From: Halapricum desulfuricans
GTDB lineage: Archaea; Halobacteriota; Halobacteria; Halobacteriales; Haloarculaceae
Assembly (NCBI RefSeq): GCF_017094465.1
Contig: NZ_CP064792.1
Span: forward strand, 1-64,000
Length of the DNA: 64,000 bases
Reading direction: 5' to 3'
Position 1 is the first letter of the stretch. Every line of letters starts with the position of its first letter. The notes below the pieces were generated by a model, which saw only the letters and a list, made by a program, of their open reading frames with translations, searched no databases and was not told the DNA's origin. This document shows, piece by piece, positions 39,299 through 53,781 of the stretch. The translations under genes were made by a program, and so were the position numbers.

Positions 39299-39394
39299 GA
39301 TATTCTCCCTCAGGTCTAGATATTGAACGTTCACGACGATTGGTGCATCCGAGTGCCCCAAGCGTTATTACCTAATACACGAATTATGAATTGT

Positions 39395-39979
39395 ATGTCG
39401 AAGGCTGCTGGAGATCCCGAGCGCGCCGTCAATGGCCTGCTATCAGTGGCACAGCTGCTGGAGGAACTGCGGCTGGCGCGACTCTACACGTTCGTTCTCC
39501 GAGAAGGAGAAGTCACCATCGACGACATCGTCGAGGAATTGGAGCTGCCGCGGACGACAGCGTACTCGGATGCCGGCACGCTCGTCGAACTCGGGGTGTT
39601 GACCCGGGATGAAGAACAAAAGACGCACACGTATTCGGCAGTCCCGATTACGCTCACCGCGAATCTCGACGGAGACGAGTACACGATCACGCCGACGCTC
39701 ATCGAAGCGTTCGGCCGGTCGGCTCGGGACCAAGATCTCAATCTCTTGATCGAAAGATATGGACTCGGAAAGCTCGCAGCAGCGATCACGTATGCCGTCC
39801 CATACGCGGAAGGTGAGATGTCAGAACGGGTTGCGGCCCGAGAGCTTGATCTCCAGCACGCGTTCGCAATTGCCGTGCTACAGGCGTTGCGAGACGTCGT
39901 CATTGATATGAAGACGGTCGATCCATATTTCGAGGAGATCCGGAACGCCCGTGAGCAGCCGCCAACAACAGAGGACTGA
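39395..39979 (+). CDS. HTH regulator, antitoxin-like partner of PIN protein
   Basis: A 194-residue protein with an N-terminal winged helix (about 25-85: TIDDIVEELELPRTTAYSD, then LVELGVLTRDE) like TrmB/ArsR regulators, and a helical C-terminal part that may be the toxin-binding or dimerisation region. It precedes the PIN gene by 11 bases in the same direction. An upstream ATG at 39386 is an alternative start. It is most likely the repressor/antitoxin of the pair. Confidence 0.72.
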   Translation: MSKAAGDPERAVNGLLSVAQLLEELRLARLYTFVLREGEVTIDDIVEELELPRTTAYSDAGTLVELGVLTRDEEQKTHTYSAVPITLTANLDGDEYTITPTLIEAFGRSARDQDLNLLIERYGLGKLAAAITYAVPYAEGEMSERVAARELDLQHAFAIAVLQALRDVVIDMKTVDPYFEEIRNAREQPPTTED

Positions 39980-39990
39980 GGACGGAAACG

Positions 39991-40518
39991 ATGAGTAAGC
40001 CGTTCGATCCATTTCAAGAGTCGGTAGCGTGGGTGGCAGATACGGGCCTGTTCATTGCGTGTGGCCGCCAGCAGAACAACAAGTATACTGCACTCGAACG
40101 CTTCGCCGAACGGAACGACCTTACCTTCCTCATTCCGCAGCGGGTCTACGACGAACTTGGTGGTGCCCCGAATCGGAGCACACCGAGTCAGACACCGATC
40201 AACAGCGCCATCGACGCGGGCTGGGTCACGGTCGCTGACGAACCGGATTACAGGAACAGCACGGTGTCACGGGTTATGGACGACGTCCTGTCGTTCATCG
40301 CCCGTTCGTCGAATCGGGACGAAGACCAGATTGAGAAAGCCGACACTGCACTCGCTGCGGTCGCGGCCGAACGACTCGAAGAGAACACCAATTACGTCTC
40401 TATCGTGACGACGGACCTCGATGCCGGAGAAGGTGCCGTGGCTGCGCTTGAGGCGAACGGGTTCGAGAACCGCGTTCAGTTCAAAAATGGCTTCGAGTTA
40501 ATCGACGAGATTACGTGA
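39991..40518 (+). CDS. PIN-domain protein, toxin-like
   Basis: A 175-residue PIN-fold nuclease candidate. Acidic residues in conserved places are Asp in WVADTGLFIACG (about 17), Glu in RVYDELGG (about 55), Asp in EKADTALAAVA (about 113) and Asp in TTDLDAGEGAV (about 140). VapC-like toxins cut RNA with such an acidic cluster. The upstream HTH gene suggests a toxin-antitoxin module, but related PIN proteins also work in RNA processing. Confidence 0.75.
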   Translation: MSKPFDPFQESVAWVADTGLFIACGRQQNNKYTALERFAERNDLTFLIPQRVYDELGGAPNRSTPSQTPINSAIDAGWVTVADEPDYRNSTVSRVMDDVLSFIARSSNRDEDQIEKADTALAAVAAERLEENTNYVSIVTTDLDAGEGAVAALEANGFENRVQFKNGFELIDEIT

Positions 40519-40772: not shown

Positions 40773-40928
40773 ATTCGGATGTCTCACGCCTGGAAAAGCG
40801 ATTCGTTCGACAGTCGGACAAGCGCCTCCAGCGCCCATCGCTGCGATTCGTGCCGAAATCACGGCTCACAGAGTCTGAATCCGCCGTTTCGTGTTCTACT
40901 GTTGGAATGTATTTGCTTTCGTTCGATG
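40773..40928 (+). repeat. Direct repeat, copy 2 (VWA gene upstream region)
   Basis: Second copy of the 38688-38842 segment. It ends exactly at the ATG of the VWA gene, so it holds that gene's promoter or leader. No clear TATA box is seen at -27. Conservation between the copies runs to the start codon and stops there. Confidence 0.8.
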
Positions 40929-42905
40929 GGCGACGAGACAACGCAGACGTTACTGATTCCAGCCGCTGCGGACTGCGACATCCACGGCCTCCAGACCGGA
41001 CGCCGCTATGAGATCGCCGAGGCACGGTACTGCGTGCCGACAGCTGCTGCGGACCCGAGTGACGAACGGTGCCCGAACTGCGGCGCGCAACTGCGCCACG
41101 CCGTCGCAATAGACGCTGCACCGGCACCACTTCGACAGGCTGCCACGGAGTTGAAAATCGACGAGCCGTTTTTCATCGCGACCGAGCAGACGCGGCTCGT
41201 CCCGACTGACTGGGAGAAGGTTGACGACTGGCAGCCGATGGACCGAGACGACCGAACTCGACATACGGCGCCGGACTATGTCTGCGACAACTGTGAGGAG
41301 GTCTTCGACGACCGCGACCTGCATCTCCCGACCGACGCGGAGAGCGCCCCTGTTATGCAGAGTGTCAATCAGTCGCCGATGGCGTCGTCGTCGGACACGA
41401 TGGGGCTTGCGACTGGCGGTGCGAAGGACGCGACGAACTTCCGAGAGAATATCGAGCAGGGATTCACGCCCCAGCCTGGCGCGATCAGCACAGAAGGGTT
41501 GTTCTACGACTACTATTTCGAGACGGGCGGCCGCCGCGCCGAGACGGACGCGCTGTTCGCGCCGCGGTACGCTGCCGGCGTCTCGAAACATCCCGTCACC
41601 GCCGAGACCGAACACGTCCTCAGCGTCGGGCTAGACTCGACGCTGTCGACTGATGACTTCGAGCGGCCGCGCCTCGATCTGGTGGCAGTGGTGGACGTCT
41701 CGGGGTCTATGGATTCGCCGTTCGATGAGTACTACTACGACGAACATGGTCGCCAGCGCGAGGTTGAGACGACAAGCGAGCGGAAGATCGACGCCGCCAC
41801 CCGCGCGCTGTGTGCGCTTACAGAGCAGTTAGACGACGAGGACCGACTCGGCGTCGTCCTGTACAACAACCGCGCCCATGTTGCCAAGCCGTTGCGAGAC
41901 GTCGGCTCGACAGATATGCACGCGATTCGGGAACATATCCGTGAGGTGTCTGCTGGCGGCGGGACGAATATGGAGGACGGCTTCATGGCGGCGTGGGATC
42001 TCCTCCAGGACGCACCGGCCGAACCCGACACCGAGCGCCGCGTCGTGTTCATGACCGATATGATGCCGAATATGGGCAGCACCGGTGAGACGCGGCTCCG
42101 TGAGCTGTTCGCGGACGCTGCTGCTGATGGGATCCACACGACGTTTCTCGGGATCGGGCTCGACGAGAACGCCGATCTTGCTGACGCCGTCTCAGACGTC
42201 CGTGGTGCGAACCACTACTTTGTCCACTCCGTCGAGGAGTTCGAGCAACGCCTTGGCGAGGAGTTCGCGTATATGGTGTCACCGCTGGTGTTCGATCTCC
42301 AGCTGGAACTCGACGCGGAGGGCTGTGAGGTCGCCGATGTCCATGGCGCCCCCGGCAACGACAGCACTGACCAGCTGATTCACGTGACGACGCTGTTCCC
42401 CTCGCCCAAGGTCGACGGCGAGACCCGCGGCGGGGTCGTCCTGGTCGAACTCGACGTGACCGATACGGACCGCGCGGTCGATCTGGTCGCATCGTGGGTT
42501 GAGCGCGACGGCAGTCATCACTCCGAGCGCGTCGCCGTCGAACTCCCACGGAATGGGCGCACGTTCGATCACAGTGGCATCCGGAAAGCCACCGCGCTCG
42601 CCCGGTACGCGAGTCTGCTTCAAGCGTGGGCCGAGGACGTCCACTCGCGCACGAACGTGTCGTCAGGTGTTGATGACTGGATCGACTCCGGGAGGCCAGA
42701 TGAACAGGAACGCGAGTCGGTACCGCTGACAGTCCCAGAAGAGTACGGCCGCCGGTTCAAGACGCTACGGGCGTACCTGGTTGCGGAAGCCAACGCACTC
42801 GGTGACGACACGCTGAGCCAGGAGGTTGAGGTGCTTGAGACGCTGTGCGCCGAGGCTGGCATCGAGATACAGCCGACGGTTGAGCAGGCAGGTGATTGGG
42901 ACTGA
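40926..42905 (+). CDS. Zinc-ribbon von Willebrand A domain protein
   Basis: A 659-residue protein. The N-terminus has two possible zinc sites (CPNC near residue 49 and CDNC near 119). After a linker, a vWA domain has a full metal-ion-dependent adhesion site: DVSGSM near 258, GGGTNMEDG near 345 and MTDMMPNMG near 377. A beta-rich C-terminal part follows. vWA proteins often act as metal-dependent adaptors in stress or quality-control complexes. No signal peptide is seen, so it is cytoplasmic. Its stop overlaps the next start (TGATG), tying it to the HAD/HEAT protein. The start ATG at 40926 is preferred over an upstream open stretch, which is leader sequence shared with the other repeat. Confidence 0.85.
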   Translation: MGDETTQTLLIPAAADCDIHGLQTGRRYEIAEARYCVPTAAADPSDERCPNCGAQLRHAVAIDAAPAPLRQAATELKIDEPFFIATEQTRLVPTDWEKVDDWQPMDRDDRTRHTAPDYVCDNCEEVFDDRDLHLPTDAESAPVMQSVNQSPMASSSDTMGLATGGAKDATNFRENIEQGFTPQPGAISTEGLFYDYYFETGGRRAETDALFAPRYAAGVSKHPVTAETEHVLSVGLDSTLSTDDFERPRLDLVAVVDVSGSMDSPFDEYYYDEHGRQREVETTSERKIDAATRALCALTEQLDDEDRLGVVLYNNRAHVAKPLRDVGSTDMHAIREHIREVSAGGGTNMEDGFMAAWDLLQDAPAEPDTERRVVFMTDMMPNMGSTGETRLRELFADAAADGIHTTFLGIGLDENADLADAVSDVRGANHYFVHSVEEFEQRLGEEFAYMVSPLVFDLQLELDAEGCEVADVHGAPGNDSTDQLIHVTTLFPSPKVDGETRGGVVLVELDVTDTDRAVDLVASWVERDGSHHSERVAVELPRNGRTFDHSGIRKATALARYASLLQAWAEDVHSRTNVSSGVDDWIDSGRPDEQERESVPLTVPEEYGRRFKTLRAYLVAEANALGDDTLSQEVEVLETLCAEAGIEIQPTVEQAGDWD

Positions 42906-44695
42906 TGCTGGTGTTCGCGTTCGATCGTGACTGGACCGTCGATGTCAACCCTCATCCGCAGTATGAGGCAGTCCCCCTAGAGTGGGTCCGCTACCTCGCA
43001 CACAAAACCGACCACGCAGTCTACGCGATCGGGAATCAAGACCTCGCTGAAGAAGCGGCGATTCCCGGCGTCGTTGACATTGTCGGTCGCCACCCTGCCG
43101 ACTGGGACGACTGGCTTGGCGACAAACAGCCGGACGGTCGGTATGAGTCGTTCCCGACGCGGCGGGAACGGTTGACGTTGATCGAAGCGTTGCACCCGGC
43201 GGCCGATCGCTATATCGTCGTTGACGACCTCGATTTGAGCGACGTCGAGGGCTGGCAGCACTACCACGCCTGGGAGTTTGTCCCGGCAGTCCGTGATGGG
43301 CACCTCGACCTCGCGCCCCCGTTGACGGATGATCAAGTGAGTGATGACGATCTGGCCACTGATGGCGGGCTGCCCACGGTAGCGGGGATCAAGCCCGCGG
43401 ACGCCGACCACCTCGCGTCGTTCCTCGATGGGTACGACGACACGCCCGGATTCGAAATTACCTACGAACAGGACGGCGACGATGTGACGCGACTGTGCTG
43501 GGACGTTACTGTAGTCGAGGACACAGCAGAGAGTGAGGCACCGATCGTTCGCTGCTCGTCACTCATCCCCAAGGGGGAGTCGTTCACTGTGCCCATCGGT
43601 GCAATCGATGTCGTCCACGTTGTCAAACTATCACCGGAAGCGGTCACCGCACAAGCCGAGACACAACCCGACGCAGCAGCGGCGCTCCGCCGGCTTGCGG
43701 ATGCAGCGCCGAACCAGCTGCAGCTTTCCCCCGTCTTGACACTACTGGATCAGAAAGCGTTGCCACCGCAACAGCAGCGAGACGCCCTCCACGCGCTGGC
43801 CGCCCTCACAACGGTTCGACCAGATGCGTGTTCGCCAGCGATTCCCATCTTGCGCTCCCTGCTTCAGGAAGATGACCCCGTCGCTCCTCACGACGCCTTG
43901 ACGACACTGCACGCAATCGCAGAAGCCAGCCCTGAAGACATCGCCCCGGCGCTCGATGATATCGAACCGTATCTCGACTCAGAGCGTACGCCGGTTCAGC
44001 GCGAGGCAGCTGGCTGTCTTGCCGGGATTGCCACGGAGTACCCGGCCGACTGCATTGATGCGGTACCGAAGCTCGTCGATTTCCTCGAGGAGGATGACGA
44101 GAGGCGACGGTACGCTGTCCGTGCTCTTGCAAAGGTGGCTGCTGAATCCCCCGAGACGACTGCATCAACTGCCGGTCATCTCGCTGAGATCGCTCTTGAG
44201 GAATCAGCATCGAATGAGGTTCGACAACTCGCAACGGCAGCCCTTGGCCGCACTCTTAGGGCGCCTGCCGCATTTACGACTGAGATCTTCGAGGACGTCG
44301 TCGAGTTGTACGATACTGATAACTACAAACTCAGGAATAACGCTATCGCATTGACGTACGAGGTGGCAGACCTACACACCGATATCGTAGAGGAGTACAT
44401 CGATGACATCGCAGCGTTGCTTACTGACGACGATTCTCAGACTCGTATCAACGCGAGTGGGACACTCGCACGTGTGGCTGAAGACTTCCCAGCGTCGGTC
44501 AGTCACTTGACCCCGATGTTCGTCGAATTGCTTTCGGACGACAACGAGCAGGTCCGAGAGAACGCCTGCTGGGCGCTGGGCCGTCTCGAGGCCTCGGAGG
44601 CGAAAGCGACACTCGAAGAGCGTCTCCAGGAGGAGCCAAGTGAAGCCGTTCGGAACCGGATTGCGTGGGCACTTTCAGAGATCGACCCAGTATGA
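42905..44695 (+). CDS. HAD-like / HEAT-repeat protein
   Basis: A 596-residue protein. The first 150 residues resemble a HAD phosphatase: MLVFAFDRDWTVDVNPHP places Asp8 and Asp10-like acids at the catalytic loop, and YIVVDDLDLS resembles a later acidic motif. From about residue 240 to the end there are 7-9 HEAT-type helical repeats (for example QREAAGCLAGIATEYP, RRRYAVRALAKVAAES, QVRENACWALGRLEAS). Such repeats bind proteins or nucleic acids. It overlaps the VWA stop by one base and precedes the ADP-ribosylglycohydrolase by 76. The joining of a possible phosphatase with a HEAT scaffold is unusual. Confidence 0.75.
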   Translation: MLVFAFDRDWTVDVNPHPQYEAVPLEWVRYLAHKTDHAVYAIGNQDLAEEAAIPGVVDIVGRHPADWDDWLGDKQPDGRYESFPTRRERLTLIEALHPAADRYIVVDDLDLSDVEGWQHYHAWEFVPAVRDGHLDLAPPLTDDQVSDDDLATDGGLPTVAGIKPADADHLASFLDGYDDTPGFEITYEQDGDDVTRLCWDVTVVEDTAESEAPIVRCSSLIPKGESFTVPIGAIDVVHVVKLSPEAVTAQAETQPDAAAALRRLADAAPNQLQLSPVLTLLDQKALPPQQQRDALHALAALTTVRPDACSPAIPILRSLLQEDDPVAPHDALTTLHAIAEASPEDIAPALDDIEPYLDSERTPVQREAAGCLAGIATEYPADCIDAVPKLVDFLEEDDERRRYAVRALAKVAAESPETTASTAGHLAEIALEESASNEVRQLATAALGRTLRAPAAFTTEIFEDVVELYDTDNYKLRNNAIALTYEVADLHTDIVEEYIDDIAALLTDDDSQTRINASGTLARVAEDFPASVSHLTPMFVELLSDDNEQVRENACWALGRLEASEAKATLEERLQEEPSEAVRNRIAWALSEIDPV

Positions 44696-44771: not shown

Positions 44772-45710
44772 ATGATCCCCACCTCGCAAGCGGAAGGCTG
44801 TCTCCTCGGGCTAGCCTGTGGCGACGCCCTTGGCCGGCCAGTCGAATTCAAATCCGCCGTCACGATCGATACACAGTATGGCACCGTTGACTCGATGCTC
44901 GGCGACGGCAGTCACGGGCAACCGCCCGGCACAATTACCGACGATACCGAACTCGCGCTTCGGATCGCTCGCAGTCTCGTCGACTCTGGCGGCTTTGACG
45001 GCGCTGACGTCGCAGAGCGGTTCGTGAGCTGGTACGAGACCGGCCCCTTCGATATTGGCTTGATGACTCGCGACGCCCTCGCTCGTCTCCAGCAGGGTGA
45101 ACCGTGGGAACACGCCGGCCAAGACGTCTGGGAGTCACGACCGGAGGGCAGTAACGCCGGCAACGGGAGTGTGATGCGGTGTGCACCGTACGCGCTGGCC
45201 TTCACCGACGACCCGCAGCATCTCGGGCGCGTGAGCGAACAATCCTCAGCGATCACCCACGCGGATCCCCGCTGCAAGCGTGGCTGTGCCATCCTGAATC
45301 TCACTATCGCGGGTCTGCTTCACGGCGAGGACGAGCCGTTGCGACGCGCTCTTGAGACGACCTATCCCGGCCAGTCGGACGCACCGGAGCTCATCAACGC
45401 TGTCGAGGGACTGCCGGACAGCGTCTCGGCAAGCGAGCTCAACAACGGTGGATACGTCGTCGATGCGCTCCAGGCGGGGCTTTACTATGCACTTGACGCA
45501 GACAGTGCAGAAGACGCGATCGTCCGGGCGGTCAACGCTGGTGGCGACGCCGATACAGTCGGTGCGATCACCGGGGCTGTCGCCGGCGCTCGCTTTGGCG
45601 CGGAGTCACTTCCCGACGCGTGGCTGGCCGCGATCGAGGAAACCGACGACCTCCGCGACCTCGCGGGCGAATTGCTCGAACTGGAGCGTACTGGGAGTGA
45701 TGCCAAGTGA
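44772..45710 (+). CDS. ADP-ribosylglycohydrolase family protein
   Basis: A 312-residue DraG/ARH-like enzyme expected to remove ADP-ribose from a protein, RNA or DNA target using two Mg ions. Metal and substrate motifs are GDALGRP near residue 17, TDDTELAL near 56, GSNAGNGSVMR near 125 and GGDADTVGAITG near 260. An open stretch upstream starts at 44640 inside the previous gene; MIPTSQAEGCLLG at 44772 is the family start. It overlaps the next gene by four bases (GTGA). No ADP-ribosyltransferase is visible in the cluster. Confidence 0.93.
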   Translation: MIPTSQAEGCLLGLACGDALGRPVEFKSAVTIDTQYGTVDSMLGDGSHGQPPGTITDDTELALRIARSLVDSGGFDGADVAERFVSWYETGPFDIGLMTRDALARLQQGEPWEHAGQDVWESRPEGSNAGNGSVMRCAPYALAFTDDPQHLGRVSEQSSAITHADPRCKRGCAILNLTIAGLLHGEDEPLRRALETTYPGQSDAPELINAVEGLPDSVSASELNNGGYVVDALQAGLYYALDADSAEDAIVRAVNAGGDADTVGAITGAVAGARFGAESLPDAWLAAIEETDDLRDLAGELLELERTGSDAK

Positions 45711-46363
45711 GTGACCGCCCGACTCGTATCGGCCTCCTTTCAGATATCCACGGCAACGCCATCGCACTAGAAGCCGTCCTTGAAGAGATAGACGACGTGG
45801 ATGCACTCGTCTGTGCCGGTGACATCGTCGGATATGGCCCATCGCCGGGGCAGTGCATCGAGATGGTTCGCGAGCGATCGATTCCAACGGTGGAGGGCAA
45901 CCACGACCGGGCCGTTGTCAACGACCAGCCCTACGAATCAGGCGACCAGTACGCCAGCCGCACGCTGTCGGAGGAGCGGCGGTCGTGGCTAGCGGCGCTC
46001 CCGCGAGAGCGCCTGCTGTTCGATGGGCGACTGAAGGTCGTCCACGATCACCCCGAAGAGCGGAATCGGTACACACGACCCGCCGCGTTTGAACCGACGC
46101 TCCTCGACGACGAAGCCGTGCTTGTCCTCGGGCATACACACGTCCAGCATGCCGAAGTGTTTGCTGACGGGATCGTCGTCAATCCCGGTAGTGTCGGCCA
46201 GCCACGTGACAGGGACCCAGATGCTGCCTATGCGGTCGTCAATCTCGATGCGATGACTGTTGATCTGCATCGAGTTTCCTATGATATCGAGGAGGTACGG
46301 CGGCGGATCGAGAACACCAGCATCGACAGCTACAACGCTGAGCGACTGGCGAGGGGACGATAG
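45707..46363 (+). CDS. Calcineurin-like metallophosphoesterase
   Basis: A 218-residue phosphoesterase of the YfcE/MJ0936 type. The metal ladder is complete: SDIHGN (about residue 13), GDIVGYGP (about 37), GNHDRAV (about 65) and GHTHVQ (about 137). It starts with GTG inside the stop of the ADP-ribosylglycohydrolase gene, so the two are translationally coupled. Likely substrates are phosphodiesters or phosphoesters of nucleotides; processing of released ADP-ribose or a cyclic product is an attractive guess only. Confidence 0.92.
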   Translation: MSDRPTRIGLLSDIHGNAIALEAVLEEIDDVDALVCAGDIVGYGPSPGQCIEMVRERSIPTVEGNHDRAVVNDQPYESGDQYASRTLSEERRSWLAALPRERLLFDGRLKVVHDHPEERNRYTRPAAFEPTLLDDEAVLVLGHTHVQHAEVFADGIVVNPGSVGQPRDRDPDAAYAVVNLDAMTVDLHRVSYDIEEVRRRIENTSIDSYNAERLARGR

Positions 46364-46394
46364 CTCGACCATCCATCAAGAGACACAACTACCA

Positions 46395-47516
46395 ATGTAC
46401 GAGCTCACGTACGAATTCGAGGGCAGTGGGGGAAACATCCAGTATCAAACGAGACAGCAAGCCGAAACCGACGCCACCACAGCCGGCATCGACGTTGAAA
46501 TCGTCTCGACAGGACTGTCGCTCAACGACCAAACGATCAACGGTATCGCCATTGTCGCTATTTCAGCAGACGTCGATCCCGACACAGCGTTCGAGTCTGC
46601 AACTAGCGTGCGTCGTACTGACGAACTGATCGGTCTAGCGACAGCCCACGAACTTGCAGAGCGAACTGAACTCCCAGATACGGCCATCGCCACCCGGTTC
46701 GAGTTGTCAAAAGCACCCCTGATTGTGGGGAAAGCCACGCATGGTCCTAACCAGATTGACGCAGTGTTCCGCAACGATAACGGGGACGTGATCAGCAACT
46801 ACGAGCTCGCCTCTCGGTATCAGCATGACACCCAGGATGTCCATTTTCATCCCCTCGGTGTCCTCGTCGAACGCGAGTTGTATCGGCCCGTCACTGCCTC
46901 TCAACCCAGCGCTGAGAGTGATGGCGTGGGGGAGCCGATACCAATAGCGACGTATCGCGGGTCGACCTCGAAACCGTGGCAATTTGGGCTGACTCGATAC
47001 AACGGACAACTGCTCCTAACCCAAGCTCGTGCCGGCCCCTCAAAGTTCGATCCGGTGCTCAAGCGATTCCCGATCGAGACGCAACCGCTTGGCAACCAGC
47101 CACTCGTGTTTAGCCACACTGTCAGCCGGCGACTCTGGTCCGAAGATCCGGTGAACCCCCATGTGCAGTCCCAGCGGAGCGAGGGGCTTCGGACACAATT
47201 CCTCTACAACGATGCGGACGGGTGGCACCTCATACAGCCAAAAGGGCTCGACACGGCCGACGACGCAGATAGTGATTCATTCGAATCGACACAACTCGAC
47301 GGCGTCTCTGTTCGGTCAGCGTTGCTGCGCTCGGAGACCGACGGCGAGATGAAGACCACGGTCGAACACGAGTACCGCATCACACCAACGGCGCTTGAGG
47401 TCTGTGAGCGACTATACGCGCTTTCGTATTACGAAGCCAACGAAGAGTCGCTCGACAATCTCCAGTGGGATATCGCCGAGGCCACTGCATATGACATCGT
47501 TGAGGCGGAGCGGTAG
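46395..47516 (+). CDS. Unrecognised cluster protein
   Basis: A 373-residue cytoplasmic protein, 31 bases after the phosphoesterase. I recognise no family. The N-terminal 90 residues alternate strands and helices (MYELTYEFEGSGGNIQYQT, then GLATAHELAERTEL). The middle looks beta-rich with repeated Tyr/Trp segments (KPWQFGLTRYNGQLLLTQ; FSHTVSRRLWSEDP), and the C-terminus is helical and acidic. There is no signal peptide, membrane helix or clear catalytic motif. Its place at the end of the VWA-HEAT-DraG-phosphoesterase set suggests it belongs to the same function. Confidence 0.7.
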   Translation: MYELTYEFEGSGGNIQYQTRQQAETDATTAGIDVEIVSTGLSLNDQTINGIAIVAISADVDPDTAFESATSVRRTDELIGLATAHELAERTELPDTAIATRFELSKAPLIVGKATHGPNQIDAVFRNDNGDVISNYELASRYQHDTQDVHFHPLGVLVERELYRPVTASQPSAESDGVGEPIPIATYRGSTSKPWQFGLTRYNGQLLLTQARAGPSKFDPVLKRFPIETQPLGNQPLVFSHTVSRRLWSEDPVNPHVQSQRSEGLRTQFLYNDADGWHLIQPKGLDTADDADSDSFESTQLDGVSVRSALLRSETDGEMKTTVEHEYRITPTALEVCERLYALSYYEANEESLDNLQWDIAEATAYDIVEAER

Positions 47517-47763: not shown

Positions 47764-48969
47764 GTGGAGTCCCGTCGAACTGCCGTCATCAAACTCGACA
47801 CACCCGAAGGCGCGAATGAATATCTGCGGGAGACTGTCGAGCAATTCAACTACTGTGCCAACACCGCAAGCGAATGGTGCTGGCACGGCGACGACGGCTA
47901 CCACGTTACATCGAAAGCAAAGGCCGAAGATGCGCTGTACGGCCAGCTACGCGAAGATACGGAGTTGACCGCGAATCTCGTCCAGAAAGGGATACGCCAA
48001 GCCGTCGAAGCCATCAAGAGCGGCGTCGAACGGCTCAAAAACGGCCAAGATACGTCTCGTCCGACGTTCACGGCGGATACCGCCGTCTACGACAAGCGAA
48101 GTGCCACGTTCCACCGCGACCACGTTTCGCTATCGACTGTGGACGGACGAATCGAGTGCGACTACATTCTCCCCAAGGACGACGACACACCGCCGACAAA
48201 GTACGTCGCCAACGAGAACTACGAGTTTCGGCGGGCGACACTCCATCGACGTGACGGCGACTGGTATCTCCATGCGTCGATGCTCAAAGAGGACGATACC
48301 GACACCACCACCGGGCACAGGACAGTCCTCGGTGTGGACCTCGGTGTGAACCAACTCGCGGTCGCTTCGACCGGGCGATTCTGGTCGGCAGACGAGTTCA
48401 ACCACTGGAAGCGAGAGTACGAAAAACGGCGTGGCGACCTTCAGCAGTGTGGGACACGGGCGGCACACGACGCGATAACAGGCGTCGAGCGCAAGGAGGA
48501 CGGACGCTTCGAGATATTCCTGCATCGTGTCGCCAACGAAATCGTAGCCGAAGCCGTCGAACACGACTGTTCGCACATCGTGTTCGAGGACCTGACCGAC
48601 ATTCGTGAGAACGTGCCACAGGCGTCGTGGCATCATCTGTGGGCGTTCCGCCGCCTCTACGAGTACGTCGAATACAAGGCTGAAGAACACGGTGTCGAAG
48701 CCGTTCAGGTAGACCCACGGAACACGTCGAAGCGGTGTTCGACTTGTGGGTTTACCCACGACGACAACCGCAACGGCGAGGACTTCGAGTGTCAGGACTG
48801 CGGCTACCAGAACCATGCCGACTACAACGCGGCGAAAAACATCGGCCTTCAGTATCTCCGGCGTCGGCAAAACGCAGACGTTGGAGGCGCACCCGTAGAC
48901 GTGCGCTTGAATCGCGGGACGTTGAACGTGAGTGGAGAGTACGACCTTCCCGCCCCATCTGAGGCGTAG
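47764..48969 (+). CDS. tnpB: TnpB RNA-guided nuclease (IS200/IS605 type)
   Basis: A 401-residue TnpB. The RuvC-like catalytic acids are Asp in VLGVDLGVNQLAV (about residue 190), Glu in IVFEDLTDIRE (about 277) and Asp in NHADYNAAKNIG (about 344); the zinc ribbon CSTCG...CQDCG lies between the last two. It starts at GTG 47764. No tnpA is present, so it is a tnpB-only element, with structured sequence on both sides. TnpB uses an RNA derived from the element's right end to guide DNA cutting, which favours keeping the element. Confidence 0.93.
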   Translation: MESRRTAVIKLDTPEGANEYLRETVEQFNYCANTASEWCWHGDDGYHVTSKAKAEDALYGQLREDTELTANLVQKGIRQAVEAIKSGVERLKNGQDTSRPTFTADTAVYDKRSATFHRDHVSLSTVDGRIECDYILPKDDDTPPTKYVANENYEFRRATLHRRDGDWYLHASMLKEDDTDTTTGHRTVLGVDLGVNQLAVASTGRFWSADEFNHWKREYEKRRGDLQQCGTRAAHDAITGVERKEDGRFEIFLHRVANEIVAEAVEHDCSHIVFEDLTDIRENVPQASWHHLWAFRRLYEYVEYKAEEHGVEAVQVDPRNTSKRCSTCGFTHDDNRNGEDFECQDCGYQNHADYNAAKNIGLQYLRRRQNADVGGAPVDVRLNRGTLNVSGEYDLPAPSEA

Positions 48970-51092: not shown

Positions 51093-51510
51093 CTCGACGC
51101 GATCTCTAAGTGTCAGAAATAGAATAAGAGGGGCAAGCGTTCGGCAGTACGTCTCTGGGTATGTACAGGCGGTACAAGGCGACTGCCCCGGGGCTTGACC
51201 CCGGGGTGCGTTCGCATCTATGTGTATGTCCACAAGTACGTGAGTACGTATATTCTGCCGAACGTTAGTACTCCCAGCGGAGATCCGATATCGAGGTACT
51301 GATAGCGACCATAGACGGAACGCGACCAGACCCAACCTACGTATTAACAATCCAATCCAGCGGTGTAGTGCTGTGGGATTTCCTCGTCTCCGGACGGGGG
51401 AATATGTCCGTCTCGTTCATCGATGTCGAAGTGTCACCAGGTACCGGCTACGTATATTCTACTACCGCCCTATGGCACGGTTTTATTCGTTTCAGACTGC
51501 TGCCGTGTGT
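51093..51510. other. Intergenic region with hairpin and promoter
   Basis: About 420 bases holding the GGGGCTTGACCCC-type hairpin at 51186-51206 and, at the right edge, the TATA-like TTTTATT (51480-51486) about 28 bases before the chosen start of the PLD gene. Otherwise I see no gene. Confidence 0.45.
51186..51206. repeat. GGGGCTTGACCCC hairpin, copy 1
   Basis: CCCCGGGG-CTTGA-CCCCGGGG, an 8-base stem. The 20-odd bases before it (GGCGGTACAAGGCGACTG) are shared with the copies at 63030 and 63614. Compare the tnpB tail at 63686, whose stop lies in the same kind of hairpin. Confidence 0.6.
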
Positions 51511-53781
51511 ATGGACGAACTGACAGCGAATATTTCGTTCGACCGATTCGCAGATATGCCGGAATTCTACGGATCCGGTGCTGCGGAATACCGCCTGGCG
51601 ATGGTGAAAGAGCGGGATGACTTTCTCGATTTGTTCGCAGGCGCTCGTCACGTGGACGCCGTGACGTACGCGGAGACGCCCGACCTGATGGTGAAGATGC
51701 TAACCGAATACGATATCGGCTCACTTGACGTGCTCATCGGGAACGCCGAAGACTACGCCGACCAGGTAAATGAAGTCTCGACAGCGAGGTCGCTCGCCCG
51801 ACTTCGACAGGACGACCGACTCACGATTCGATTGAAGAACCGGAAGACAGTCCACTCGAAGATTTACCGAATCGTGATGCCGGACGACACGGTGAAGCTC
51901 GTCCAAGGATCGGCGAATCTCTCGCGGAATTCCTGGGAGTACCACACGAACCAGATATCCGTCATCACGACCGATGTCGGGACTGAACTCGACGAAGAGT
52001 TCGAGCGGTTCATCGACGAATACCGCGACGGGTACAGCGACCAGACGCTCCTCGAAGGGCTTGTCGAAGCGCTGGAGGAGGCTGATTCACCGGAAGAGCG
52101 AGAGAACCGCATCGAGTACTGGGTTGGTGCCGGTGACCTTGATGTGAGCGACACTGCCGCCCTGAATCAGGATGCTGTTGAGGACCTGAAAGACGCCGCC
52201 GACCAAGTCACCGCCGTTGTTGACGACCCTGAGGAGGCTGACGAGACGGTTGCGTTCGTCGAGGAACCCGAGAACGCCGACCGTAACGTCGTCGAGCCGG
52301 ACGAGCCAACGGACGAAGACGGTTCCGTCGCTCTAGACGAGGACGAGTCACCGGACGTTGGGCTCGTCGAATCGGAACACGAAACGGGGCTGACGGACGG
52401 GCTCGACCGTCCGCGGGTCCGTGCGCCCGACGAGAAGATCCGAATGGGAACCAGCAAGGTAGACAAGGACACTGCCGACGAGTTCGGGGCCGGGCTCCGT
52501 GACCGAGGCGCAACTGTCGAGGATCACAGCATCACCGCGCCGCTGAGCGCGTACAACAACCAGGTCAAGGAATCGACGGCTATCCCGACGATGTCGGTCC
52601 TGCCGGAGGCCGAGCAGGTCGTGATCGGCGAGGACGACGAGATGATTCTCGTCGCCACCGACGAGCCAACCCCCGAAGTCCTGGATCACTGCCTCGAAAC
52701 CATCGAGGACTACATCGAGACCGTCCAGAACCACGGTCACACGCAATCCGAGACCGCAGTGATGGCGCAGATGTACGAGGCGTTCCTCTACGGGTTCTGG
52801 GCCCCGTTCGCCAACCAGTACGCCGAGGCACTGTCGTCACCGTCACGGACGCTGGACAACGTCCTGCAGCACCTCTACATCGAAGGGAAGAGCGACGCAG
52901 GGAAGGACAAACTCACCGAGTATATCCTGCGACTCGTCTCCGACAACACGGTCATCTCCGGGGTGGACGCAGACGACGTCGGCGTCAAGGAAGTCCGCGG
53001 CGTCCGCGAGTGGGACACGTGCTTCCCGTACGCCATCATCGACGCCGAAAAAGAGAAGATCCAGCGCTGGAGCCCGATCCGAAACTACTGGGGTGACTGG
53101 ACCCCAACTAACGTCGATCAGCCGTGCCTTATCTTCACGACCAACGACGCACTCCCAAAATCCGAGTTCCGGAACCGAATGAAAATCCTGAGCATGGACG
53201 TCTCCTTCCCCTCCAACCCGGAAGATCCAGGGTTCCGCAAAGCACAAGAAGACCTGTCGGGCGTGCTGGAACGGCAAAACCCGATCTTCAGTTACGTGGC
53301 CCGCCGCATGCTCACCGAACAACCGTGGACAGACGGGAACGGCACGATCGAAGACGTCCGCCGGATTGTCCGCGAATTCTACAACGAAGCCGGTCGAGAG
53401 CAGCCCGAGTACTTCCCCGCCGATGAGCCAGCCGAGAAGACGTACGACACAGGGCGGTTGAAGTGGCAGCGCGACATTCAGGGCGGCCGTGTCACGTTCG
53501 AATCGGAGCCGAATGCCATCACAGCTGACTTCGACCGCGAAGAATACGAGGTGTACGACTACGAGAAACGTCTCCCCAAACGATTCATGTCCGAGAAATC
53601 CTCCACGAGCGTCTACATCGGCGCACCTGAAGAATTCGCCGAGTGGATCGGATACTCCGTCAATGACCTCCTGAACGGGGCAGCCGAAACCGGCACAGAC
53701 ACCGAGCAGTCAACAACCACGGAAGACGCATCGGATACGGACAACTCCGGCGGATTCCTGTCTCGGCTGTTCGGGGACTAG
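51511..53781 (+). CDS. PLD-like nuclease fused to P-loop ATPase
   Basis: A 756-residue protein. The N-terminal domain has one phospholipase-D active-site half: TVHSKIYRI (HxK, near residue 115) and VQGSANLSRNSW (near 133). An acidic linker (about 220-320) follows. The C-terminal half looks like an AAA+/SF3-type ATPase, with Walker A EGKSDAGKDKL near 458 (Asp after the Lys, where Ser/Thr is usual), IIDAE near 510, CLIFTTND near 548 and RNRM as a possible Arg finger. The start at 51511 (MDELTANISF) is set by TTTTATT about 28 bases upstream; an ATG at 51472 is possible. A nuclease joined to an ATPase suggests DNA defence. Confidence 0.72.
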   Translation: MDELTANISFDRFADMPEFYGSGAAEYRLAMVKERDDFLDLFAGARHVDAVTYAETPDLMVKMLTEYDIGSLDVLIGNAEDYADQVNEVSTARSLARLRQDDRLTIRLKNRKTVHSKIYRIVMPDDTVKLVQGSANLSRNSWEYHTNQISVITTDVGTELDEEFERFIDEYRDGYSDQTLLEGLVEALEEADSPEERENRIEYWVGAGDLDVSDTAALNQDAVEDLKDAADQVTAVVDDPEEADETVAFVEEPENADRNVVEPDEPTDEDGSVALDEDESPDVGLVESEHETGLTDGLDRPRVRAPDEKIRMGTSKVDKDTADEFGAGLRDRGATVEDHSITAPLSAYNNQVKESTAIPTMSVLPEAEQVVIGEDDEMILVATDEPTPEVLDHCLETIEDYIETVQNHGHTQSETAVMAQMYEAFLYGFWAPFANQYAEALSSPSRTLDNVLQHLYIEGKSDAGKDKLTEYILRLVSDNTVISGVDADDVGVKEVRGVREWDTCFPYAIIDAEKEKIQRWSPIRNYWGDWTPTNVDQPCLIFTTNDALPKSEFRNRMKILSMDVSFPSNPEDPGFRKAQEDLSGVLERQNPIFSYVARRMLTEQPWTDGNGTIEDVRRIVREFYNEAGREQPEYFPADEPAEKTYDTGRLKWQRDIQGGRVTFESEPNAITADFDREEYEVYDYEKRLPKRFMSEKSSTSVYIGAPEEFAEWIGYSVNDLLNGAAETGTDTEQSTTTEDASDTDNSGGFLSRLFGD

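What the first reader, a model, noticed from the sequence alone, without database searches (positions are those of the whole stretch)
46395..47516. Orphan protein closing the VWA-DraG cluster
It is a complete 373-codon acidic gene with strand-rich middle and helical acidic tail and no motif I recognise, sitting 31 bases after a coupled pair. Orphans fixed in a conserved operon often hold the specific activity of a system.
Basis: inference. Interest (0 to 1): 0.55.

Follow-up and report, generated by a model that had tools for sequence, protein, structure and literature searches.

The report
Exchangeable orphan in haloarchaeal VWA–CARF locus
A salt-loving archaeon carries a protein of no known family, with a conserved rear part and a variable front part, inside a many-part gene cluster that looks like a defence or stress-signalling system; the gene is real, but its job is inferred, not shown.

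Summary
In detail: 46395-47516 is an intact 373-codon acidic gene (pI 4.5), 31 bp after a DraG/metallophosphoesterase pair, under purifying selection, without a match in Pfam, NCBIfam, PADLOC or PDB sequences. It does not close the cluster. In relatives the order is ATPase(AAA_14/DUF4143) diverging from VWA - HAD-like(-HEAT) - DraG - phosphoesterase - ORPHAN - CARF_m1 - PIN. Here CARF and PIN lie 18 kb away on the same replicon, behind a remnant of a second orphan, and the ATPase was not found. All 6 full-length copies found, this one included, sit in this cluster; only 6 of 24 examined long-form VWA loci have the orphan. Its conserved last ~200 residues also occur alone in three other haloarchaeal genomes. 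The front varies: two relatives carry ~120 extra residues, and in this copy the stretch from 15 bp before the start codon to about codon 148 has been exchanged by recombination. Two AlphaFold runs on three-sequence alignments gave a fold only for residues ~1-75 (ferredoxin-like). Best reading: a non-enzymatic adaptor or specificity subunit of a VWA-centred conflict system with CARF-PIN and no Cas10 detected; modest confidence. New protein family; new variant of a known kind of system.

The parts
46395..47516 (+). orphan gene, 373 aa
46395..46622 (+). residues 1-76: small beta-alpha-beta-beta-alpha-beta (ferredoxin-like) domain
   Evidence: AF2 pLDDT 53-91 per 10-residue block over residues 1-80; VIA-align best Z 6.7, rmsd 3.2, 74 aligned, SerB2 5is2; aligned in all 6 copies
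46623..46688 (+). residues 77-98: fast-evolving linker; place where two relatives carry about 120 extra residues
46689..46910 (+). residues 99-172: middle segment found only in the full-length copies
46911..47513 (+). residues 173-373: conserved C-terminal module, also found as a stand-alone frame
46380..46838 (+). recombination tract: from 15 bp before the start codon to about codon 148 the gene resembles G003, while its flanks resemble pHSR-Bgl01; it ends about 25 codons before the C-terminal module
   Evidence: two-breakpoint model gain 107.8 log units, largest of 20 shuffles 11.3; dS switch
45707..46363 (+). calcineurin-like metallophosphoesterase (Metallophos_2, YfcE-like)
44772..45710 (+). 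ADP-ribosylglycohydrolase (DraG family)
   Evidence: start taken from conservation
42905..44695 (+). protein with a conserved first ~150 aa (called HAD-like from a recalled DxDxT-type motif; no Pfam match to HAD) plus HEAT repeats
   Evidence: HEAT; first unit separable:
40926..42905 (+). VWA domain protein with CxxC pairs upstream of the VWA domain (zinc-ribbon matches all below Pfam cut-off)
   Evidence: start taken from conservation

Best explanation
The gene encodes an optional, modular subunit of a haloarchaeal VWA-centred conflict or stress-signalling system. Shown by sequence: the module layout, the genomic slot after the phosphoesterase (or HEAT) gene and, where CARF-PIN are adjacent, just before them; purifying selection; variation and recombinational exchange of the front part. 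Inferred: the conserved C-terminal module docks onto a common partner of the system, and the front part (ferredoxin-like domain plus middle segment, sometimes with a 120-residue insert) recognises a trigger or target. The VWA protein would scaffold the complex, the ATPase would sense or remodel, the HAD-like, DraG and phosphoesterase proteins would reset modifications or ligands, and the CARF protein would license the PIN nuclease. I expect the orphan itself to be non-enzymatic.
For: All 6 full-length copies found (5 of 146 family genomes, the window's included, plus one plasmid) lie in this cluster. The orphan lies directly upstream of CARF-PIN in the 4 of 4 copies that have CARF-PIN adjacent (L010, L011, L012, L014). 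The C-terminal module has the lowest dN/dS (0.05-0.14) and occurs alone in 3 genomes, two of them beside cluster parts (L078: DraG fused to X; L079: PIN remnant and a HEAT gene). The front varies by a 120-residue insert (2 of 6 copies), by absence (stand-alone frames) and by a recombination tract that begins in the gap before the gene and leaves the C-terminal module untouched. The CARF and PIN genes match PADLOC CARF_m1 (2.7e-57) and CARF_m1--CARF_PIN (3.4e-25). The published VMAP third component likewise has a conserved C-terminal domain and variable N-terminal part (PMC7159879, passages).
Against: No fold for residues 99-373. Of 41 invariant positions in the C-terminal module 12 are Arg, Lys, His or Glu, which would also suit an enzyme. 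The cluster lacks the orphan in 18 of 24 loci. The recombination tract is seen in one copy only and ends inside the middle segment, about 25 codons short of the C-terminal module, so it does not follow a module border. The stand-alone modules share no common neighbour across the three genomes, and in L077 the links are weak. The window's own genome has no detectable ATPase gene, so the system may be incomplete there. No interaction or phenotype data exist.
Confidence: 0.37

Rival explanations
1. It is an enzyme, for example an ADP-ribosyltransferase whose mark the neighbouring DraG protein removes.
For: A DraG family gene is in 5 of the 6 full-length orphan clusters. The C-terminal module is strand-rich at low confidence and holds invariant R201, R212, K223, H241, R245, E250, R261, H278, E324, E347, E350 and E351 across 9 sequences, so an H-Y-E type site is not excluded.
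Against: L012 keeps the orphan without DraG or phosphoesterase, and 8 of 13 DraG-bearing loci lack the orphan. The R-S-E pattern (recalled) fails: the candidate first Arg is Lys in L078, and the second Glu of the ExE-like pair is Gln in L079. No ART family matched at E up to 10.
Confidence: 0.2
2. It binds nucleic acid or a nucleotide ligand directly and is the sensor or target selector of the system, without a docking role.
For: Ferredoxin-like N-terminal domain near ACT, PII and ribosomal S6 domains (best Z 6.7); invariant Arg, Lys and His in the C-terminal module; the neighbours CARF and PIN are of nucleotide- and RNA-handling families.
Against: Z under 8 may be only a common arrangement. 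CARF-PIN pairs occur without orphan or X in 5 of the 13 loci that have them adjacent (L054, L055, L060, L061, L064), so the orphan is not needed for CARF-PIN in general.
Confidence: 0.2
3. It is a passenger gene carried by an unstable region, with no function in the cluster.
For: Rare (5 of 146); the region is rearranged in this genome, with a remnant copy at C2 65454-65718; a broken copy of the C-terminal module in G683.
Against: Low dN/dS; same cluster in four genera; 29-31 bp spacing after the phosphoesterase in the 5 of 5 copies that follow it.
Confidence: 0.1

Closest known systems
VMAP (MoxR-vWA-VMAP) ternary conflict systems
   Same: ATPase, vWA protein and a third protein of no known family with a conserved C-terminal part and variable N-terminal part; calcineurin-superfamily, HAD and HEAT elements appear among their components (PMC7159879, passages)
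   Different: The ATPase here is AAA_14/DUF4143, not MoxR; DraG and ADP-ribosylglycohydrolase are words that do not occur in that paper's held main text; a separate CARF plus PIN pair follows
CARF proteins linked to vWA-MoxR-VMAP modules near type III CRISPR loci (UAS-55, UAS-64, UAS-66)
   Same: CARF proteins together with vWA ternary modules have been reported (PMC10910872, passages), so a CARF-vWA link as such is not new
   Different: Those lie near type III CRISPR loci and have MoxR and VMAP; here no Cas10 reached the cut-off and no MoxR was seen
CARF_m1 / CARF-PIN effectors
   Same: The two genes that follow the orphan match PADLOC CARF_m1 and CARF_m1--CARF_PIN
   Different: CARF and PIN are separate genes here; the paper that defines the CARF classes is not held
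Type III-A CoCoNuTs with TerY-P and CARF proteins
   Same: vWA genes, ATPases and CARF nucleases in one locus (PMC11090510, passages)
   Different: No McrB-like GTPase, kinase or PP2C among the cluster proteins scanned; that paper states CoCoNuTs are nearly absent in archaea

Membership tests
VMAP ternary system | vWA protein | tested here: met
   VWA_2 2e-13
VMAP ternary system | MoxR-type AAA+ ATPase partner | tested here: not met
   the cluster ATPase of relatives is AAA_14 plus DUF4143, with no MoxR-type family among its matches; only the L010 copy was scanned in Pfam, and a MoxR gene elsewhere in the genomes was not sought
VMAP ternary system | VMAP-C domain in the third protein | tested here: inconclusive
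   no Pfam family recurs in the 9 or 6 members scanned; a VMAP-C profile was not compared directly
ADP-ribosyltransferase | R-S-E triad conserved | tested here: not met
   first Arg and second Glu of the only candidate pattern vary among 9 sequences; motif recalled
ADP-ribosyltransferase | H-Y-E triad | tested here: inconclusive
   invariant H, Y and E residues occur in order but there is no usable fold
ACT or PII-like domain (residues 1-75) | beta-alpha-beta-beta-alpha-beta fold | tested here: met
   predicted model only
ACT or PII-like domain (residues 1-75) | membership beyond the shared fold | tested here: inconclusive
   best Z 6.7, rmsd 3.2, 74 aligned; ribosomal S6 and PII chains score within about 1 of it
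CARF-PIN signalling (neighbour genes) | CARF domain and PIN nuclease | tested here: met
   PADLOC 2.7e-57 and 3.4e-25 for the L010 genes; Pfam gives only sub-cut-off hits (CARF_Card1 0.004, PIN_4 0.031)
CARF-PIN signalling (neighbour genes) | type III CRISPR Cas10 in the genome | tested here: inconclusive
   0 of 9 genomes over cut-off for TIGR02578 and for TIGR02577; TIGR02578 gave sub-threshold hits in 4 of 9; control genomes rang in 7 and 4 of 14, over the cut-off in 3 and 1; other cyclic-nucleotide synthases were not sought

The most novel reading that the evidence does not exclude
The orphan is the exchangeable specificity subunit of an undescribed haloarchaeal immune system in which an ATPase-VWA-HAD core, reset by a DraG and a phosphoesterase, controls a CARF-PIN nuclease without any Cas10; its front part is swapped between lineages by recombination as targets change.
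Probability: 0.19. Interest if true: 0.78.

Novelty: new variant of a known kind. Interest (0 to 1): 0.5.

Why it matters
The finding ties a protein family without an entry in the libraries searched to a compact, repeatedly rearranged locus that joins a VWA protein, enzymes that could reverse modifications and a CARF-PIN pair, in genomes where no Cas10 was detected. If the reading is right it offers a testable Cas10-independent role for CARF proteins in haloarchaea, and the swapped front part gives a ready assay target.

Tried and rejected
Routes that led nowhere: Pfam, NCBIfam, PADLOC and PHROGs scans of the orphan (the only hits were a PHROG at 0.15 and two Pfam families at 0.14 and 0.16, one member of 9 each); PDB sequence search with both profiles, no match at E up to 10; hhalign of the orphan against seven cluster families and the DraG-fused X region, all probabilities under 2%, so X is not a visible relative although it fills the slot before CARF; AF2 of the C-terminal module with 3 sequences, mean pLDDT 39, whose Ig-like and viral-glycoprotein VIA hits (best Z 5.9) I treat as meaningless. 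Viral and phage collections held no relative by the scans. The phylum draw of 392 genomes with the single sequence rang only in the window's own genome. Weak hits to the front half in G031, G046, G082 and G092 (E 0.003-0.007) and to residues 122-172 in G097 (E 0.002) were not followed.

Considered and rejected: CYTH/triphosphate-tunnel enzyme (ExExK start motif, recalled, not seen); a housekeeping family; missing synthase for the CARF ligand (CARF-PIN occur without orphan or X in 5 of 13 loci). The phosphoesterase-orphan co-occurrence (5 of 6 each among 24 loci, Fisher p 0.0008) is not independent evidence, because several of these loci are close relatives.

Papers: PMC7159879, PMC10910872, PMC12409355, PMC4012209, PMC11078007 and PMC11090510 were seen as passages only; all others as listings. 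The CARF classification paper (10.1093/nar/gkaa635) is not held. 'Undescribed' rests only on the searches in an open-access subset. PMC11078007 mentions haloarchaeal islands with VWA genes; I did not compare them with this cluster.

Changes on checking: the recombination tract ends about 25 codons before the C-terminal module, not at its border, so the confidence of the best explanation went from 0.40 to 0.37, the passenger rival from 0.08 to 0.10 and the novel case from 0.20 to 0.19.

Full report
Observation. The gene at 46395-47516 is intact: 373 codons, pI 4.5, starting 31 bp after the metallophosphoesterase stop; that gene overlaps DraG by 4 bp. The orphan has no match in Pfam, NCBIfam or PADLOC at E up to 1, one PHROG at 0.15, no Pfam family shared by the members of its alignments at E up to 10 (two single-member hits at 0.14 and 0.16), and no PDB sequence match at E up to 10.

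Distribution. Among 146 genomes of the family, 5 carry it: G000 (the window), G003, G014, G096, G142, in 4 of 22 genera. A sixth full-length copy, 83% identical, is on plasmid pHSR-Bgl01 of Halapricum desulfuricans, the only one of 72,556 plasmid records with a match. A draw of 392 genomes from the phylum rang only in the window's genome. A draw of 392 from the order with the six-row profile rang in 9, four of them outside the family. Viral and phage scans gave nothing. The window lies at the start of a 180,725-base second contig of its genome.

Cluster. All six full-length copies lie in a VWA cluster. I examined 24 long-form VWA loci: the window, L010-L014 and L053-L070. They are 23 of the 55 places listed for the VWA query, plus the plasmid. 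Of the other 32 places only two short-form ones were looked at (L071, L072), and they lack the other parts; four long but only about 40% identical places (two in G113, one each in G112 and G101) were not fetched. Counts in the 24: divergent ATPase 21, HAD-like unit 18, adjacent CARF and PIN 13 (plus the window, displaced), DraG 13 (one broken by frameshifts in L067, one 5 kb away in L069, one beyond the ATPase in L061; a partial DraG 8 kb away in L055 not counted), phosphoesterase 6, orphan 6. Three loci have all eight parts (L010, L011, L014). Contig ends cut at least L013, L066 and L070, so these are lower bounds. DraG is fused to a 305-residue region X in four loci (L057, L058, L059, L063); L056 keeps a truncated X; X lies directly before CARF in L056-L059. 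X and orphan never occur together in the 24, but outside them the stand-alone C-terminal module of L078 sits next to a DraG-X gene. L012 keeps the orphan without DraG and phosphoesterase. G001 (L053) has the phosphoesterase but no orphan, CARF or PIN in 20 kb; its synteny with the window stops at the end of the phosphoesterase gene, next to a short repeat.

What the neighbours are. The ATPase carries AAA_14 and DUF4143 and resembles PADLOC's candidate PDC-S01 (5.6e-22); it was not found in the window's own genome. The CARF gene matches CARF_m1 (2.7e-57) and the PIN gene the PIN half of CARF_m1--CARF_PIN (3.4e-25). In the window's genome intact CARF and PIN frames lie at C2 65853-66341 and 66341-67393, 18 kb from the orphan, behind a broken second orphan at 65454-65718. 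That second piece is 71-72% identical in DNA to the plasmid and G003 clusters, against 88% between the plasmid and the window's own cluster, so two different cluster copies may have left parts here, rather than one copy split by an insertion. No Cas10 reached the cut-off in the 9 genomes examined with two families; TIGR02578 gave sub-threshold hits in 4 of 9, all in open frames of 237-315 residues.

Anatomy of the orphan. Residues 1-76 fold with fair to good confidence as beta-alpha-beta-beta-alpha-beta; SerB2 ACT, ribosomal S6 and PII domains are nearest, best Z 6.7, which the tool warns may be only a common arrangement. Residues 77-98 are a fast-evolving linker (dN/dS 0.28-0.85), where L012 and L013 carry about 120 extra residues found in no other of 146 genomes. 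Residues 173-373 are the most constrained part (dN/dS 0.05-0.14). This module also stands alone as an open frame in G644, G632 and G546, and as a broken one in G683. In G632 it sits beside a DraG-X gene, in G546 beside a PIN remnant and a HEAT gene; in G644 the links are weak (an ATPase relative at 25% identity and a partial match to the region upstream of the VWA domain). Across 9 sequences 41 positions are invariant, 12 of them Arg, Lys, His or Glu.

Mosaic gene. In 50-codon windows the window's orphan is close to G003 in codons 1-150 (dS 0.32-0.59) and far from the plasmid copy (0.98-1.98), then switches: codons 151-373 are close to the plasmid copy (0.03-0.57) and far from G003 (0.95-1.92 where computable). 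DraG and phosphoesterase are plasmid-like throughout. A two-breakpoint model on 658 informative sites puts the tract from 46380, 15 bp before the start codon, to about 46838, codon 148 (fit gain 107.8; largest of 20 shuffles 11.3; 25% of sites inside the tract are still plasmid-like). The tract ends within the middle segment, about 25 codons before the C-terminal module begins. The HEAT repeats also diverge more than their surroundings between window and plasmid (codons 301-500, 66-77% DNA identity).

Interpretation. The recurrent slot, the conserved rear module and the variable, exchangeable front fit an adaptor or specificity subunit best. The design recalls the VMAP protein of MoxR-vWA ternary systems (PMC7159879, passages), but the MoxR criterion is not met, so this is a likeness and not membership. 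A link between CARF proteins and vWA ternary modules has been reported near type III CRISPR loci (PMC10910872, passages). The enzyme reading, in particular an ADP-ribosyltransferase opposed by DraG, is weakened by L012 and by the unconserved R-S-E pattern, but not excluded. No step of the mechanism has been tested by experiment.

Noticed in passing
G000:C2 65454-67393 (L009 10454-12393): Broken second orphan followed by intact CARF_m1 and PIN frames, more divergent than the window's own cluster: two cluster copies may have left parts on one replicon.
   Followed up: partly
window 51373-53781: 802-aa protein with a weak N-terminal PLD-like match (below Pfam cut-off), 84-86% identical to genes beside the same kind of cluster in L012 and L060.
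   Followed up: partly
window 42905-44695: The 'HEAT' protein is modular: its first ~150 residues also occur without HEAT repeats (L068 as a 139-aa frame; L013 with another C-terminal region).
   Followed up: partly
L057, L058, L059, L063, L078: DraG fused to a ~305-residue region X with no Pfam or NCBIfam match (tested on the L059 copy); it lies in the orphan's slot before CARF in L057-L059, no CARF was seen in L063, and L078 is a separate context.
   Followed up: partly
window 39323-40518: Winged-helix gene (DUF7437, TrmB-like) followed after 11 bp by a weak PIN-like gene (PIN_12, E 0.005, below cut-off): possible toxin-antitoxin style pair.
   Followed up: no
window 47764-48969: TnpB-like gene (identified by eye, not by a family search) starting about 230 bp after the point where synteny with pHSR-Bgl01 ends (47538).
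   Followed up: no
L014 10325-11119: RefSeq start of the plasmid orphan (HSBGL_RS15675) looks 108 codons too late.
   Followed up: yes
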